Part shown: positions 17,821 through 36,492 of the stretch, piece by piece | How the letters are laid out: every line of letters starts with the position of its first letter | Numbering within the stretch: position 1 is the first letter of the stretch | DNA from: Haloterrigena turkmenica DSM 5511 | GTDB lineage: Archaea > Halobacteriota > Halobacteria > Halobacteriales > Natrialbaceae | Direction: 5' to 3' | NCBI RefSeq assembly: GCF_000025325.1 | Contig: NC_013744.1 | Span: 434,001 to 498,000 of the forward strand | DNA length: 64,000 bases | The notes under the pieces: generated by a model | The model's input: only the letters and a program-made list of their open reading frames with translations | Database searches by the model: none | Told to the model about the DNA's origin: nothing | Program-made: the position numbers and the translations under genes

Positions 17821-18897
17821 ATGTCCGCACTCGATTACCTTCGACAGCGGAATACGCCGCGAACTGGAAACCAGATCCTCTCGAGATCGGGACGGCTCAC
17901 GTTGCTAGTGGGGATCGCCATCCTCGCCGCGCTGGGGCCAGTCGTCCAGTCGGTCCAGCCGTTCTGGCTGAATCTCCTGGTTCGGATGTTGACCTTCGCT
18001 CTCCTGGCGCTGAGCCTCGACTTCGTCTTCGGCTACGCGGGACTGCTGTCGTTCGGCCACGCCGCGATGTACGGTGCCGGCGGGTACGCTGCGGCGCTGT
18101 TGGTCACGGAGGTGACCGCGAGTGCACTGGTCGTCCTACCGCTCGCGGTCGTCACCGGCGTCATCGTGGCCACGATAATCGGCTGGCTCAGCGTGCGGGC
18201 TCGCGGAATCTACTTCGCTATGCTGACGCTGGCGTTCGCACAGATGCTCTACGTCGTCGCGTTCACGGACCTACCGGCAACGATCGCCGGAATGGAGACG
18301 GTGACCGGCGGCGATAACGGTCTCTACGGCATTCAGCTGTACGAGCTGTTCGGGATCGACTTTCGGGAGCGGCTCAACTACTACTACTTGACCCTCGGGA
18401 TCGTGGCGCTATCGCTGGCCGGGATAGTCCGGCTCGCCAACTCCCCGTTCGGCCGCGTCCTGCAGGGCATTCGCGAGAACGAAGAACGAACGGAATTCAT
18501 CGGCTACGACGTCCAGCGCTACAAGGTCATCGCGTTCGCGATCAGCGGCGGCTTCGCCAGTCTCGCCGGCGCGCTCTACGTGCCGTTCCAGAGCGTCGCT
18601 AACCCCCAACTGCTCCACTGGACGGTCAGCGGAGAACTCGTCGTGATGGTCCTACTCGGCGGCATGGGCACGTTCTGGGGCCCGATGCTCGGGGCCGGAC
18701 TCGTCGTCTTTCTCGAGGATCGTCTCGGCAGCGTCGCGAGCTGGGAAGTTATCCTCGGCAGCCTGTTCGTCGCGGTCGTCGTCTTCGCCCCGCGTGGACT
18801 CGCCGGGTCGATCATCACGCTCCGAAACGATCCTCGTGCCGCCATCGGAAACGCGAAGCGAGCGCTCGAAAACTACGTGCGGAAGGTGAGAGGATAA
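17821..18897 (+). CDS. LIV-type ABC permease LivM
   Basis: Protein of 358 aa with ten or so membrane segments. The segments ALSLDFVFGYAGLLSFGHAAMYGAGGYAAALL and LLGGMGTFWGPMLGAG are characteristic of LivM permeases. It starts directly after the LivH stop with no gap. The C-terminal tail is cytoplasmic and basic (RNDPRAAIGNAKRALENYVRK). Confidence 0.9.
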   Translation: MSALDYLRQRNTPRTGNQILSRSGRLTLLVGIAILAALGPVVQSVQPFWLNLLVRMLTFALLALSLDFVFGYAGLLSFGHAAMYGAGGYAAALLVTEVTASALVVLPLAVVTGVIVATIIGWLSVRARGIYFAMLTLAFAQMLYVVAFTDLPATIAGMETVTGGDNGLYGIQLYELFGIDFRERLNYYYLTLGIVALSLAGIVRLANSPFGRVLQGIRENEERTEFIGYDVQRYKVIAFAISGGFASLAGALYVPFQSVANPQLLHWTVSGELVVMVLLGGMGTFWGPMLGAGLVVFLEDRLGSVASWEVILGSLFVAVVVFAPRGLAGSIITLRNDPRAAIGNAKRALENYVRKVRG

Positions 18898-20575: not shown

Positions 20576-21385
20576 GTGGACGTAGAGACCGACCGAATTC
20601 ACGATCTGGTTCGCGTCGAATTCCTCACCGACGAGTCCGTCGCCCGACTGGTAATGGAACAGGGGGAGAACCCGATGAACGTCTTTCGCCCGTCGAAGGT
20701 CGAGGCGATGGCCACTGCGGTCGAGTCGCTCGCGGACGATATCGATTCGCTCGTCCTGTACGGCGAACCGGTGTTCTCCGCTGGCGCGGACCTCAGTTCG
20801 GTCAAGCGGATGCCACAGGAGATGCGCCCGGCGAAGATCGACACTATCGCAGCCGCGTCGAACCGGTTCATCCGCTCGATCAGGCAGTTCCCGGCACCGG
20901 TCATTTCGGCCGTCACTGGTGTCGCAGCGGGCGGTGGGCTCGGATTCGCACTCGCATCCGACCTGATCTACGTTCACGCTGAGGCCGTATTCGACACGGC
21001 GTACGCCCGTATCGGACTCACCCCGGATAACGCGACGCCATTTTTCCTCGTTCGGACGGTCGGTCCGTACCGGGCCAGGGAATTACTGTTCGATCCCGAA
21101 CCGATCTCTGCGGCAGAGATCGTCGATCTCGGGCTCGCAAACGATCGATACGATGTCCCGGAGTCGGAGTTCATCGAGACCGTGACCCGAGACGCCATAC
21201 GGTATGCGAACGGACCGACCGAAACGTACGCGCAGACGAAGCAACTCCTCGATACCGCCTTCGAGGGACGACTCGACGACCACCTCGAGGAGGAACGGTC
21301 GACGATCAAGCGAATGAGCGACTCCGATACGTTCGACGAGGGCATTTCGGCGTTTTTCGAGAAGCGCCAACCGAACTGGGAGTAG
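20576..21385 (+). CDS. PaaG-like crotonase (isomerase type)
   Basis: Crotonase of 269 aa starting with the GTG at 20576. The oxyanion segments are FSAGADLSS and GVAAGGGLG. The two hydratase glutamates are absent and an Asp occurs in ARIGLTPDNAT, as in PaaG, so isomerase-type chemistry is more likely than hydration. It is separated from livF by 150 bp but codirectional. The target may be a ring-epoxide or a beta,gamma-enoyl-CoA intermediate. It differs enough from the gene at 210 that the two are probably not redundant. Confidence 0.7.
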   Translation: MDVETDRIHDLVRVEFLTDESVARLVMEQGENPMNVFRPSKVEAMATAVESLADDIDSLVLYGEPVFSAGADLSSVKRMPQEMRPAKIDTIAAASNRFIRSIRQFPAPVISAVTGVAAGGGLGFALASDLIYVHAEAVFDTAYARIGLTPDNATPFFLVRTVGPYRARELLFDPEPISAAEIVDLGLANDRYDVPESEFIETVTRDAIRYANGPTETYAQTKQLLDTAFEGRLDDHLEEERSTIKRMSDSDTFDEGISAFFEKRQPNWE

Positions 21386-21937
21386 TAACCGACAGCACCG
21401 CTTGCGAGGTCGCTACGGAGTTTCGAAGACGGTGGCCGGAACTGAATCGGCCACCTCGTCCCATTTGGTGATCATCGCAGCAGGGGCCGTCATGTCGCGA
21501 TGAGCGATGTGTGGCAGAGACCATCACGGCCCCTACAATCGTTCTCCGAACTGCAAGTGACCGTTCTCGAGCGAACGGTCTGCGGTTCGACGAGAGTGTG
21601 TGGGCGGCTTCGGTTTACGGCCGAAGCCGCGTTGACGTGGACGGACGATAATCGGTTTGACCGACCCGAACGAATTTCGGGTCGATCGAACCGTGGAGCA
21701 TCATCTTGCCACGGGCGGGATGATATCGAGCTGGGGGTTCGATCTCGATAGTCAATCTGGCTGAGTTATCCCGCCAAGACCACTAACGCTCGCGACAGTA
21801 ATAAACTCTATTAAACGCATGAATAATTCCGCTTCGAGGTGACCGCTCATCCCGGGAACGCGTTCCGTCGACGCTCGAGCGTCGGACGGGTCCGCCGGTG
21901 AGAAAGAACCAAGAGACTTCCCGCCGTTTCCCCATCC
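21386..21937. other. Gene-free interval dense in inverted repeats
   Basis: About 550 bp without a convincing gene; the only sizeable frame (21500-21751) is Arg/Ser-rich and not halophile-like. It contains the inverted-repeat cluster annotated separately at 21431-21714. Confidence 0.5.
21431..21714. ncRNA. Candidate structured element: six perfect inverted repeats
   Basis: Perfect stems are: 21431-21438/21448-21455 (8 bp, loop 9); 21482-21490/21526-21534 (9 bp, loop 35); 21559-21566/21573-21580 (8 bp, loop 6); 21604-21613/21621-21630 (10 bp, loop 7); 21662-21670/21676-21684 (9 bp, loop 5); 21691-21696/21709-21714 (6 bp, loop 12). The fifth extends by 7 more pairs (one G-U) beyond one mismatch, giving a 16-of-17 helix that competes with the sixth. 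The density suggests a structured RNA or the remains of an element with folded DNA; strand and function are unknown. Confidence 0.35.
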
Positions 21938-22714
21938 ATGACGTTCGAAACGCTCGAAGTCTCCGTCGACGACGGCATCGCGGCCGTTCGAATCGATAAC
22001 GATCCCGTCAACGCGATCGACCAGCAGATGCGCCACGAACTCGCCGACACGGTCGATATCCTCCGGGAGGATCGAGTTCGAGTCGGGATCATTACCGGAC
22101 GCCCAGACGTGTTCTCGGTCGGGGCCGACGTCGGCCTCTTCGAGGAGGCCCAGGAGTGGACCACCGACGAGTTCCGTTCGAACTCGCGGATTCTGGGCGG
22201 CGCGTTCGATGCGATCGAACGCATGGAAAAGCCCGTACTGGCCGCCATCGACGGCACTTGCGTCGGCGGCGGCCTCGAACTCGCGTTAGCCTGCGACGTC
22301 CGGATTGCGAGTCCCGATGCGACGCTCGGCTTCCCCGAACACAACATCGGTCTCATACCCGGCCTAGGCGGGTGTTCCCGCTTCGTCCATCTCGTCGGTC
22401 CCGGGACGGCGAAGGATCTCATCTTCAGCGGCGAACTGGTCGACGGTGAACGCGGTCGCGAGATCGGGCTCATCGAGCGCGTCGCGGACGATCCGGAGTC
22501 GGCTGCTCAAGCGTACGCGGACGACCTCCTCGAGCAACCGCCGCAGGCGCTCGGACTCGCGAAGTGCGTCGTCAACGCCGCCCGCGATACCGACACCCAG
22601 ACCGCGGGCGTCCTGGAATCGCTCGCCCAGAGCACGCTCCTCGAGACCGACGATCACCGGGAGGGAATCAAGGCGTTCCGCGAGGACCGCGATCCGGAGT
22701 TTACCGGCGAGTAA
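21938..22714 (+). CDS. Enoyl-CoA hydratase (canonical crotonase)
   Basis: Crotonase of 258 aa. Catalytic Glu residues are present in CVGGGLELALACD and in GFPEHNIGLIPG, indicating true hydratase activity. The oxyanion loop is FSVGADVGLF. It lies downstream of the hairpin-rich interval and upstream of a UspA gene, both codirectional. It is one of three canonical hydratases in the window and has no obvious partner dehydrogenase beside it. Confidence 0.78.
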   Translation: MTFETLEVSVDDGIAAVRIDNDPVNAIDQQMRHELADTVDILREDRVRVGIITGRPDVFSVGADVGLFEEAQEWTTDEFRSNSRILGGAFDAIERMEKPVLAAIDGTCVGGGLELALACDVRIASPDATLGFPEHNIGLIPGLGGCSRFVHLVGPGTAKDLIFSGELVDGERGREIGLIERVADDPESAAQAYADDLLEQPPQALGLAKCVVNAARDTDTQTAGVLESLAQSTLLETDDHREGIKAFREDRDPEFTGE

Positions 22715-32648: not shown

Positions 32649-33530
32649 ATGACGGTATCTGAACGAGAGATAATCGACGTTCACGTCCACATGAATCCGT
32701 TCTGGCGAATGGACGCGGACGCCAAACGAACGCTAGAGGAACACTCCGCGGATTTCGAGCGAAAAGTCGAACTCGCGCGGAATCCCGAACGATTCCTCGA
32801 ATACCTCGACGAGCAGAACGTCGCGACCGCGGCGATCATCAATTACGTGAGCCCGATTCTCGGCTATACCCACGCCACAAACGAGTGGGCCGCGGCGTTT
32901 CGCAGCGAGGCCTCCGAGTCCGAACGCGTGCTCGCGTTCGGTGGGTTCGATCCGCGAGTTGCCGACGATCCCACAGCGGAACTCGATCGAATCCTCGACG
33001 AGTTCGAGCTCGACGGAGTCAAGATCCACCCACCTCATCAGGGTATCTCTGCGAACGATTACCGGGACGATCCGGATACCCGCAACCTCGAGGAACTGAG
33101 ACAACTCTATGCACGCTGTGCCGAGGCGGACGTTCCAGTGATGTTCCACACTGGAACGAGTATTTTCTCGGGCGCTCGGTCCCGCTACGCGGATCCGATG
33201 CCGCTCGATGACGTCGCTGTCGACTTCCCGGACCTCAACATCATCATGGCCCACGGCGGTCGACCGATGTATACCGAGGAGGCGTGGTTCCTGCTTCGCC
33301 GTCACGAGAACGTCTATCTCGATATCTCGTCGTTTCCACCGTCGAACCTACTCGAGTATTTTCCGGAAATCGAACGCGTCGATGATCGTGTTCTGTTCGG
33401 CAGTGATTGGCCTGGACCGATGGTACCGGATATCGGCGACAACGCCGCGATCGTCGAAGAACTTGAACTGCCGGAGAATACGATCGATCGTATTCTTCGG
33501 ACGAACGCGGAATCTGTGTTCGATATATAA
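32649..33530 (+). CDS. Amidohydrolase-2 family metal-dependent hydrolase/decarboxylase
   Basis: TIM-barrel protein of 293 aa. Metal-site motifs are DVHVHMNP near the N-terminus, GVKIHPPHQG, VMFHTGTS, IMAHGGRP and LFGSDWPGPM, the order found in ACMSD and gamma-resorcylate decarboxylase relatives. These enzymes hydrolyse or decarboxylate aromatic and related acids. It is the last catabolic gene before the IS-rich segment and is followed by two hairpins. Confidence 0.8.
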   Translation: MTVSEREIIDVHVHMNPFWRMDADAKRTLEEHSADFERKVELARNPERFLEYLDEQNVATAAIINYVSPILGYTHATNEWAAAFRSEASESERVLAFGGFDPRVADDPTAELDRILDEFELDGVKIHPPHQGISANDYRDDPDTRNLEELRQLYARCAEADVPVMFHTGTSIFSGARSRYADPMPLDDVAVDFPDLNIIMAHGGRPMYTEEAWFLLRRHENVYLDISSFPPSNLLEYFPEIERVDDRVLFGSDWPGPMVPDIGDNAAIVEELELPENTIDRILRTNAESVFDI

Positions 33531-33550
33531 CTGATCTCCCGATACGAACT

Positions 33551-33568
33551 GCTCTTTATGCAAAGAGC
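33551..33568 (+). terminator. Perfect hairpin after amidohydrolase
   Basis: GCTCTTT (33551-33557), loop ATGC, AAAGAGC (33562-33568), 20 bases after the stop codon. This is a compact terminator-like stem. Confidence 0.45.
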
Positions 33569-33576
33569 ATGGTATA

Positions 33577-33605
33577 CGCCATTCGTATACACAATTCGAA
33601 TGGCG
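33577..33605. repeat. Second hairpin, 9-bp stem
   Basis: CGCCATTCG (33577-33585) and CGAATGGCG (33597-33605) are exact reverse complements with an 11-base loop containing GTATAC. It lies immediately after the first hairpin. Confidence 0.45.
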
Positions 33606-33665
33606 GCCACGACCTTGATAGGAGAACATGTCAATAAATGCCCTATTATGACCGGGTTCGATTAA

Positions 33666-33686
33666 TTACAAATGTACTGGTGTAAA
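33666..33686. promoter_or_regulatory. TTTACA-N10-TGTAA palindrome, copy 3 (inverted)
   Basis: TTACA, ten bases including GTAC, TGTAAA. Read on the minus strand, its left half and centre (TTTACACCAGTAC) are identical to copy 5 at 45934. Confidence 0.45.
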
Positions 33687-33779
33687 TAGTCGGAAAATGA
33701 AAACAACCGCCGTATACGATACGCCGATTTGCGCTTTGAGCGATTATGGGGGGACGGTATCGGGTCGCTGGTAGCGTAC

Positions 33780-34375
33780 CAGACTCGCTGATGTCCACGA
33801 GAGTTTGACTCTCGTACGACCTCCTGGAGTGCTTTGTACTCCAATGCTCGACGAATCGAACATTCGTCTCGACAGCAGAACGCAATGCGTTCTGAGGATG
33901 GCGAAGCCGCTACAGATTATGATTGATGAAACTCCTGTCAGGATTACTGGCAATTGGTCTTGGGCATACGATGCAATAGAACTCAACCCTAAGTTGCTCC
34001 TCGATGTCGAGTTCTTTGGACGACGAGGTACCAATATAGCTACCGCGTTGCTGTATGAAGTAACCGAGAAACACAATCTCCCTGCTGCTGAGTTCCTCGT
34101 TGGTGGTGCCAGATATTTGACCGCCCCTCTCGATTAGGATTGGTCGGTCGCCCTGGCTACGTCGATCGAAATCGCATTGAAAAGTTGTTTCATACCCGTA
34201 AATTACGGGTCGACCGCTTCCATAACTCATGGGTCAGCAGTTGGGCGAGTGCTAGTGGTTTATTTGTGTATTTTACACACTACTATAGTACACAACGACC
34301 GCACCAGTCACTCAACGAACAGACATCAAGAGGAGTGCGAAACTGGACAGTTCCTTCCCACCCCGATATAAACAT
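33780..34375 (+). pseudogene. Decayed IS6-like transposase, fragment A
   Basis: The DDE-core translation can be followed in two frames. One contains IMIDETPVRITGNWSWAYDA and EKHNLPAAEFLVGGARYL and stops at 34137. The other continues with RNRIEKLFHTRKLRVDRFHNSW and HYYSTQRPHQSLNEQT. A functional copy would need these joined, so at least one frameshift is present; the N-terminal third is barely recognisable. Related haloarchaeal elements have the same block order. Confidence 0.75.
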
Positions 34376-34548: not shown

Positions 34549-35217
34549 ATGTCTCTCATTGGGAAGATGGAAATAGGGCGTCCGGTGGGCCAAAAGGCAT
34601 TGAAAGCCGTTCCAGATATGATACTCGAGATCGAGGATATTCGTTCGTTGGCCGACGAACCGTTTAAATTCATTTTTTGGGCGTCAAATGACGATTTTCA
34701 GACATACGAATCTGCACTAACCGATGACCCTTCGGTTTCTGACTACAAATGCCTCACCGAATTACCTGAGCGACGCCTCTACCAGATACAACTCTCAGAA
34801 GAAGGCCAACAGAACACGCTTCAACCCATTGCCGTAGAGCAGGATATTGTTCCTATTAGTCTGACGATGACGGTTGAAGGCGTAGAATTCGTGGGTCGGT
34901 TCCCGTCCCGAAGTGCGATAATCACTCTTAAAGAAAAGTGTGAAGAGCTAGATAGACATTTTAGATTGATTAATCTGTACGAGGAGAAACCCGTTGAGAA
35001 GGATGGTGGCCGTACCAACAGATACGGCGTTACAAGCAGTCAACGTGGTGCCCTGATCGCGGCGTTAGAAAAAGGATACTTCAACGTGCCGCGGGAAACG
35101 CGGATGGAAGATATCGCCGATGAACTCGACATCTCGACGTCCGCTCTATCGGCTCAACTGCGACGCGGACAGAAAGCACTGCTTCGCCACACCTTAGCTA
35201 ATGGGTCATCGATATAA
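34549..35217 (+). CDS. Bat-type (HTH_10) transcriptional regulator
   Basis: Protein of 222 aa from the ATG at 34549; the frame opens at a TTG at 34525. The C-terminus (GVTSSQRGALIAALEKGYFNVPRETRMEDIADELDISTSALSAQLRRGQKALLRH) is the HTH_10 domain of bacterio-opsin activator-type regulators. The N-terminal 150 residues form an unclassified sensor-like part. It lies between two IS remnants in opposite orientation, and its lower G+C and weaker acidity suggest acquisition by transfer. Confidence 0.85.
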   Translation: MSLIGKMEIGRPVGQKALKAVPDMILEIEDIRSLADEPFKFIFWASNDDFQTYESALTDDPSVSDYKCLTELPERRLYQIQLSEEGQQNTLQPIAVEQDIVPISLTMTVEGVEFVGRFPSRSAIITLKEKCEELDRHFRLINLYEEKPVEKDGGRTNRYGVTSSQRGALIAALEKGYFNVPRETRMEDIADELDISTSALSAQLRRGQKALLRHTLANGSSI

Positions 35218-35256
35218 CGAACCGAACTCCCCAATAGTGATATTATTTATATAATT

Positions 35257-35715
35257 TTGAACTACTGTTCATCGCGGCACGGCCTAGTTCTGTATCTCCT
35301 CGGCTGGTGTTTTTTCATCGAGTGCTTGATTCGATTTCTGCTAGTCGCAGTACTGTATGAACTATTCAAGACACTTGCGGACGCTCGCCTGACTGGCTAC
35401 CCTACGAATTGTGGAAACGGTCGTCCCGAATTCGAGAGTGAGAACCGTTTTTCGATATGGTTTCGGTCAGTGTAGTTGACCCAATATTCAATCCTAACTG
35501 AGAGAGAATAGTCCGATAACCGAATTGATCGACGAGAAACTCAGCATCGGAGAGATCATTTTTCTCGCAGAGCTGACGGAGAAATATAGTTGCCGTATCA
35601 GTGCTATGCCGGCCGAACAGCGCGATATCGAAGAGCAACTCAGGATTGAAGGATATTGCAGCGTATACCCAAGACAACTCGGCGTTGATTTTGACAGCTG
35701 TTTCGGTCACTGTGT
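35257..35715 (-). pseudogene. Decayed IS6-like transposase, fragment B
   Basis: Minus-strand translation gives ETAVKINAELSWVYAA, FGRHSTDTATIFLRQL and SDAEFLVDQFGYRT, then DRFHNS. The last part, VASQASVRKCLE, FIQYCD and QKSNQALDEKTPAEEIQN, is interrupted by three in-frame stop codons. It is the same family as fragment A in the opposite orientation and is clearly inactive. Confidence 0.8.
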
Positions 35716-35727
35716 TATGTCATACAC

Positions 35728-36492
35728 CTACGAGTACAGCGAGTTGACTTCAATGACATTCGCTGTTTGAGCGATCTTTTCCTGCAGGTCGTTCGTTATT
35801 CGCTCGTCAGTCATTCGTCGAGACGGACCGGAGATACTCAGCGCACCGATAGCTTCCGTTCCCGGCACGTTCACTGCTGCCCCGATACAGCGAATGCCCG
35901 GAATATTCTCTTCGTCGTCAATCGAATACCCTCGCGACGAGGTTTTGTCGAGTTCTCGGTACAGGTCTTCGACGTCGGTGATCGTGTTTTCCGTTCGCTC
36001 GGGTAACTCGTATTCTTCTATGATTTGGTCGGCCTCATTACGAGGTAATTCGGCCAGAATCGCCTTTCCGAGAGACGTCGAATGCATCGGCATCTTTTCA
36101 CCAATTTCGGAAACGGTTCGAACCGCTGAATCGCCTCGACCTTTTTCGAGGTATACGACGTGCCCCCCTTCTTTTGCGCCGAAGTGGACGACCTCACCAG
36201 TGGTATCCGCGAGTTCTCGGACTTCCTCTCTCACCGTATTCGTGTCCGCCACCCAGTTCCTGACGGATTCGGAAATACGCACAAACTGCAGACTGAGCCG
36301 ATACGTGTGATCGTCTTTGACGACTAGCCCTTCGTTGTTCAATGTCGCGAGATGGCCGTGTACGGTGCTTTTCGAGATCCCCAACTCGTTCGCAAGTTCT
36401 GTGACCCCTATCTCACCCTTTTTTCGCAATATCTCTATTATTCTGCAGGTCTTTTTGGCCGAATCGACCTGTCGAGGAATCTCCCTAACCAT
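35728..36492 (-). CDS. IclR-family transcriptional regulator
   Basis: Protein of 254 aa from the ATG at 36492. The N-terminal winged helix is KKTCRIIEILRKKGEIGVTELANELGISKSTVHGHLATLNNEGLV and the C-terminal effector domain includes GHVVYLEKGRGD, MPMHSTSLGKAILAELP and GIRCIGAAVNVPG. Haloarchaeal IclR proteins (for example XacR of Haloferax) control sugar-acid catabolism, so this is the best candidate regulator of the uronate island to its right. A TATATAAAT box near 36548-36556 would give a leader of about 30 nt. Confidence 0.88.
   Translation of the reverse strand: MVREIPRQVDSAKKTCRIIEILRKKGEIGVTELANELGISKSTVHGHLATLNNEGLVVKDDHTYRLSLQFVRISESVRNWVADTNTVREEVRELADTTGEVVHFGAKEGGHVVYLEKGRGDSAVRTVSEIGEKMPMHSTSLGKAILAELPRNEADQIIEEYELPERTENTITDVEDLYRELDKTSSRGYSIDDEENIPGIRCIGAAVNVPGTEAIGALSISGPSRRMTDERITNDLQEKIAQTANVIEVNSLYS

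What the first reader, a model, noticed from the sequence alone, without database searches (positions are those of the whole stretch)
21431..21714. Cluster of six perfect inverted repeats in a gene-free interval
Seen directly: stems of 8, 9, 8, 10, 9 and 6 bp lie head to tail in 284 bp, three with loops of 5-7 nt; the fifth extends to 16 of 17 paired positions. Chance hairpins of 9-10 bp with short loops should be rare at this length. It could be a regulatory or catalytic RNA, a multi-stem 3' UTR, or folded DNA of a degenerate element.
Basis: seen in the sequence. Interest (0 to 1): 0.62.

Follow-up and report, generated by a model that had tools for sequence, protein, structure and literature searches.

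The report
Lineage-specific hairpin cluster between two genes
Between two acid-breakdown genes on a plasmid of a salt-loving archaeon lies a real and unusually dense run of seven hairpins, found in only two related species; it most likely acts as a folded tail on the upstream message (ending or insulating transcription), but no function is proven.

Summary
All six stems exist, and a seventh was missed (21714-21775, GGCGGGATGA/TTATCCCGCC). The 284-nt interval folds far better than dinucleotide shuffles on both strands (z -7.0 and -7.2, 0/200 each). It ranks among the strongest-folding windows of 1.26 Mb of this genome, beside the rRNA operon.

It lies in a 552-bp gene-free gap between two same-strand enoyl-CoA-hydratase genes on a 698-kb plasmid, in a Haloterrigena genome with the replicon sizes I recall for H. 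turkmenica. It is not an Rfam family, not repeated in the genome, and not found in phage records or (three stems tried) viral contigs. Of about 400 haloarchaeal genomes only one other has it (Haloterrigena sp. KLK7 plasmid, 97%). In other Natrialbaceae the two genes are about 45 bp apart, separated by another gene, or (two Natrinema) by a gap that is not unusually structured. Only hairpin 7 plus the ECH2 promoter is conserved there, and it looks like a DNA operator.

Best reading: a lineage-specific structured 3'UTR/intergenic RNA of the liv-ECH1 operon acting as a T-less hairpin terminator or insulator. This is inferred; transcription was not testable, and a non-functional DNA relic is a serious rival.

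The parts
20576..21385 (+). ECH1: enoyl-CoA hydratase/isomerase family gene at the end of a branched-chain-amino-acid-type ABC transporter operon
   Evidence: Pfam PF00378 8e-39; annotated in KLK7 as enoyl-CoA hydratase-related
21431..21455 (+). H1, 8-bp perfect hairpin, loop 9
21482..21534 (+). H2, 9-bp stem with partly folded 35-nt loop; loop contains GGCAGAGACC, also present at the syntenic place in Natrinema (suggestive only)
   Evidence: Natrinema sequence; local alignment not significant
21547..21589 (+). H3, 8 bp + about 9 bp around a 3-nt bulge, loop 6
21604..21630 (+). H4, 10-bp perfect hairpin, loop 7
21653..21693 (+). H5, 18-position stem (16 WC + 1 GU), loop 5; the single mismatch (A21685) is G, i.e. 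paired, in KLK7
21691..21714 (+). H6, 6-bp hairpin, overlaps the ends of H5 and H7 (weak on its own)
21714..21775 (+). TCCYGCC arms 51-55 nt apart, conserved in two Natrinema loci; likely a two-half-site operator of ECH2 as well as a stem
21796..21815 (+). probable ECH2 promoter (A/T-rich TATA-like ATTAAA block), conserved in position in Natrinema
   Evidence: sequence; alignment (segment C, 0/300 shuffles)
21938..22714 (+). ECH2: enoyl-CoA hydratase/isomerase family gene
   Evidence: Pfam PF00378 2e-44

Best explanation
The cluster is a lineage-specific, highly structured intergenic RNA: the 3' untranslated tail of the liv-transporter/ECH1 transcript. As RNA polymerase leaves ECH1 the nascent + strand folds into a string of stable hairpins (H1-H5, and H6 or H7). 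These make an inefficient, T-less hairpin-type terminator and/or protect the 3' end, partly insulating the upstream operon from ECH2. ECH2 is driven by its own promoter just downstream, whose operator is the H7 inverted repeat. Shown: the stems, their statistical excess, the gene order, the absence of any T-run of 4 or more on either strand, the conservation of H7 plus promoter. Inferred: that the interval is transcribed, that the RNA folds so in the cell, and the terminating/insulating role.
For: Folding z -7.0/-7.2; top of the window and near top of 1.26 Mb. Position directly 3' of ECH1 on the same strand, not coding. + strand folds more stably than - (-173 vs -156 kcal/mol for 346 nt), and helices contain G.U pairs on the + strand. 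As intergenic DNA the H1-H6 stretch diverges only 1.4% between the two species, like the flanking genes (0.9-1.4%) and less than the promoter next door (6.3%). The 7 substitutions separating the species give a sequence more stable than all but 1 of 800 random mutants when read in one direction. In Haloferax volcanii hairpins precede 503 mapped termination sites and one hairpin without the T-stretch motif terminated 59% of transcripts in vivo (PMC7237163). In other Natrialbaceae ECH1 and ECH2 are nearly adjacent (about 45 bp), so the gap with its own promoter separates genes that may be co-transcribed there.
Against: No expression data. Only one homologue, so no real covariation. Read in the other direction (KLK7 to window) the substitutions destabilise exactly as random mutations do (416/800), as expected of neutral decay. 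The orthologous gaps in two Natrinema are not exceptionally structured (z -2.0 for the whole G069 gap, best 200-nt window -3.1), so the structure is not needed wherever the gap exists. The + strand preference is weak: shuffles of + also fold better than those of -. T-runs, the main haloarchaeal termination signal, are absent.
Confidence: 0.4

Rival explanations
1. Non-functional DNA relic: a decayed insertion or a patch in which template-switching during replication has created and perfected quasi-palindromes; the hairpins do nothing as RNA.
For: Found in only two closely related replicons of about 400 genomes. The middle part H3-H5 has no counterpart in Natrinema. Mismatch-to-match differences such as A21685G are what palindrome correction gives; KLK7-to-window change looks neutral.
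Against: Intergenic divergence is no higher than in flanking genes. Single copy in the genome, no TIR/TSD recognised, nothing in the phage records, and three of its stems absent from viral contigs; no relic of an intervening gene.
Confidence: 0.3
2. DNA operator array: the inverted repeats are binding sites of dimeric regulators controlling ECH2 (and perhaps chromatin or loop formation), not RNA.
For: H7 arms GGCRGGA/TCCYGCC and the promoter block are conserved in two Natrinema above shuffles (0/300), 51-55 nt apart, about 30 nt upstream of the TATA-like block. In G074 the two half-sites vary independently (A.C mismatch), as half-sites do and RNA helices do not.
Against: H1-H6 arms share no common half-site and are not conserved in Natrinema; the H7-type pair occurs at only one other unrelated place in 1.26 Mb. 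Operators rarely need 10-18 bp near-perfect arms.
Confidence: 0.2
3. An independent structured small RNA (regulatory or catalytic) with its own promoter.
For: Density of stems; no coding potential; slow divergence.
Against: No Rfam family even at loose threshold; covariance-model search of 293 genomes finds only itself and KLK7 (one marginal hit E 0.04). No promoter upstream of H1 was identified.
Confidence: 0.07

Closest known systems
Hairpin-associated, T-poor termination sites of Haloferax volcanii (S12 type; PMC7237163)
   Same: Stable hairpin(s) in a haloarchaeal transcript, no T-stretch needed, partial termination (59% for S12).
   Different: Here there are seven hairpins in 346 nt in an intergenic gap; S12 is a single structure inside a coding region; no 3' end has been mapped here.
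Replication-origin hairpins of haloarchaeal viruses/plasmids (Rep-Arvir ori, PMC13107129)
   Same: Hairpin plus inverted repeat in a non-coding gap downstream of a gene in haloarchaea.
   Different: The neighbouring gene is an enoyl-CoA hydratase, not a Rep; no match in phage or other plasmid records; many more stems.
Dispersed three-hairpin (GAA/TTC-loop) repeat of Natrialbaceae seen here in passing
   Same: Clustered perfect hairpins in the same genome.
   Different: Different sequence, 3-nt loops, multi-copy and widespread (89 of 125 genomes); the finding's cluster is single-copy with loops mostly of 5-12 nt.

Membership tests
Canonical haloarchaeal T-stretch terminator | run of T (4-5 or more) on the coding strand after the gene | tested here: not met
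   no T or A run of 4 or more anywhere in 21386-21937
Hairpin-type terminator (H. volcanii S12-like) | stable hairpin upstream of a mapped 3' end | tested here: inconclusive
   hairpins met; 3' end mapping not available
Described RNA family (Rfam 15) | covariance-model score above the gathering threshold | tested here: not met
   (best chance match E 0.75)
MITE / insertion-sequence relic | repeated copies, terminal inverted repeats, target duplication, or similarity to mobile elements | tested here: not met
   single copy in own genome; no match in phages; three stem patterns absent from viral contigs; no terminal repeat of the whole. Target duplications could not be examined without an empty site.
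Promoter operator (H7 only) | inverted half-sites conserved upstream of the same promoter in relatives | tested here: met
   protein binding not testable
Natrialbaceae GAA/TTC-loop three-hairpin repeat | fixed linkers GTGACTGAGCG and GCGANGTC with 3-nt loops | tested here: not met
   no similarity of the window gap to these clusters and no copy in the window

The most novel reading that the evidence does not exclude
A new class of compact multi-hairpin RNA, confined to a few Haloterrigena plasmids, that controls the balance between the transporter-ECH1 operon and ECH2 (attenuator or trans-acting RNA) in acyl-CoA catabolism.
Probability: 0.07. Interest if true: 0.55.

Novelty: new member of a known kind. 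Interest (0 to 1): 0.3.

Why it matters
If the cluster terminates or insulates transcription without a T-stretch, it would be a strong natural test case for structure-dependent termination in haloarchaea, which rests on little evidence so far. If it is a relic, it shows how quickly dense palindromes arise in non-coding plasmid DNA. Either way it is one locus in two species.

Tried and rejected
Protein-coding: ORF 21500-21751 is frameshifted by two indels in the 97% homologue. Decayed VOC gene that sits between ECH1 and ECH2 in other Natrialbaceae: no tblastn trace. Repeats elsewhere in the genome: only the self match and chance-level pieces. Weak family hits of 25-54 nt: mostly in plausibly coding sequence with no shared structure, taken as chance. 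tRNA/tmRNA: none. Conservation of the H1/H2 segment in Natrinema: a shared 10-mer GGCAGAGACC with nearby CAGCAGGG looked promising, but local alignment of the 5' segment does not beat shuffles (250/300). Selection for stem stability between the two species: significant in one direction only, so not claimed. More homologues through ECH1 in GTDB genomes: only one further Natrinema record (the same genome as G069) and loci without the gap.

Full report
OBSERVATION. The six inverted repeats exist as described. The list should be extended by a seventh, H7 (21714-21775), so the cluster spans 21431-21776 in a 552-bp gap (21386-21937) between two + strand enoyl-CoA-hydratase-family genes. The 284-nt interval folds at -144.3 kcal/mol against -108.0 +/- 5.2 for dinucleotide shuffles (z -7.0); the other strand gives z -7.2; no shuffle of 200 reached either. 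In a GC-corrected scan the three best 300-nt windows of the 64 kb all lie here. In 16,630 windows over 1.26 Mb of the same genome the cluster ranks third, next to the rRNA operon and a handful of other hairpin-rich or long-inverted-repeat regions. So it is not chance at this locus. About ten comparable regions per 1.26 Mb mean that dense hairpins are not unique in this genome.

WHERE IT IS. The window is part of a 698,495-bp replicon. The replicon sizes match those I recall for Haloterrigena turkmenica; KLK7's record confirms the genus of the nearest relative. Upstream is a branched-chain-amino-acid-type ABC transporter operon ending in ECH1. Around it are a CoA ligase, CoA transferase subunits, a 3-hydroxyacyl-CoA dehydrogenase and further enoyl-CoA hydratases, i.e. 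an acyl-CoA/aromatic-acid catabolic island (naming by family, not tested).

DISTRIBUTION. The gap occurs once in the genome and at 97% identity in Haloterrigena sp. KLK7 plasmid 2 with the same gene order. It is absent from the other four genomes of the genus, from 125 genomes of the family and 392 of the order at usable scores, from a covariance-model search of H3-H5 in 293 genomes and from phages. Three of its stem patterns are absent from viral contigs. In other Natrialbaceae ECH1 and ECH2 are about 45 bp apart or have a VOC gene between them. Two Natrinema have a long gap: in G069 it separates ECH1 from ECH2; in G074 a universal-stress-protein gene intervenes and the comparison is with the region upstream of ECH2. 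These gaps are not exceptionally structured (whole G069 gap z -2.0; best 200-nt windows -2.4 and -3.1).

WHAT IS CONSERVED. Segment 21696-21840 (H7 plus the TATA-like promoter block of ECH2) aligns with both Natrinema above all 300 shuffles; the 5' part, the middle (H3-H5) and the leader do not. In H7 the arms are GGCRGGA and TCCYGCC, 51-55 nt apart. One species pair shows G-C to A-T, but the third sequence has A.C, so the two arms vary independently, as binding half-sites do. H7 is therefore best read as an ECH2 operator that also happens to pair.

EVOLUTION OF THE STEMS. Window and KLK7 differ in the 346 nt by 7 substitutions, a 2-nt insertion and a 1-nt deletion. The H1-H6 stretch diverges 1.4%, the genes 0.9-1.4%, the promoter block 6.3%. 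One substitution (A21685G) turns the single mismatch of H5 into a pair; another (T21767C) turns a G.U of H7 into G-C. From window to KLK7 the changes raise stability beyond all but 1 of 800 random mutants; from KLK7 to window they are like random mutations (416/800). Without an outgroup for H1-H5 the polarity is unknown, so this does not decide between selection and decay.

MECHANISM. I favour a structured 3' tail of the liv-ECH1 transcript that slows or ends transcription, or protects the 3' end, upstream of ECH2's own operator and promoter. No T-run of four or more exists in the gap on either strand, so the classical haloarchaeal terminator is absent. In H. volcanii hairpins are found upstream of 503 termination sites and one such structure terminated 59% of transcripts in vivo (PMC7237163). 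The + strand RNA is more stable than the - strand (-173 vs -156 kcal/mol), but + strand shuffles are too, so strand preference is weak evidence. Transcription, in-cell folding and termination are inferred.

VERDICT. A real, statistically outstanding but narrowly distributed hairpin cluster. It is not a known RNA family and not shown to be a new one; the most likely function is local and ordinary, and a non-functional relic remains a serious possibility. Interest is modest. A side finding may be more rewarding: a three-hairpin repeat found in 89 of 125 Natrialbaceae genomes, whose stems covary with almost no G.U pairs.

Noticed in passing
L116:10860-10970, L103:9735-9821, L096:4418-4484, L142-L161 (chromosome C1 of the same genome and other genomes; not in the window): A dispersed repeat of three short hairpins (9, 7 and 8 bp with mostly 3-nt loops, often GAA or TTC) joined by fixed linkers (GTCGTTCGA..TCGTGACTGAGCG..GCGAKGTCCGC..GCTTGATG) occurs in 89 of 125 genomes of the family. 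In 22 aligned copies 99.4% of cells pair, 10 of 24 pairs have changes on both sides (0/500 shuffles) and only one G.U occurs in 525 cells, which points to pairing kept at the DNA level (REP-like or binding palindromes). No Rfam match, and a search of papers for haloarchaeal REP elements found none that describes it.
   Followed up: partly
L100:17178-17500 and 18220-18570, L108:11750-12000: Further dense clusters of 4-6 perfect hairpins with short loops on the chromosome; L100 shares pieces with the three-hairpin repeat, L108 was not shown to.
   Followed up: partly
21852-21890: Two perfect palindromes (GGAACGCGTTCC and CGACGCTCGAGCGTCG) sit in the leader between the ECH2 promoter block and its start codon; unchanged in KLK7, not conserved in Natrinema.
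   Followed up: partly
L126, G074:C10 around 34650-35750: In one Natrinema the ECH1 stop is followed by what looks like a leftover C-terminal fragment of an ECH2 gene, then a universal stress protein gene and a second, intact ECH2: a rearranged version of this locus.
   Followed up: no
L109:16876-17195 and L117:5051-5370: tRNA-Pro and tRNA-His genes with nearby repeats of their own ends (GTTCAAATCCGGGCGATCCCAT; TGCGAGAATCGAACCC) beside strong hairpins, like attachment sites of integrated elements.
   Followed up: no
33450-33900: A second, lower-GC patch in the window with four to five perfect hairpins of 7-8 bp within 350 nt.
   Followed up: no
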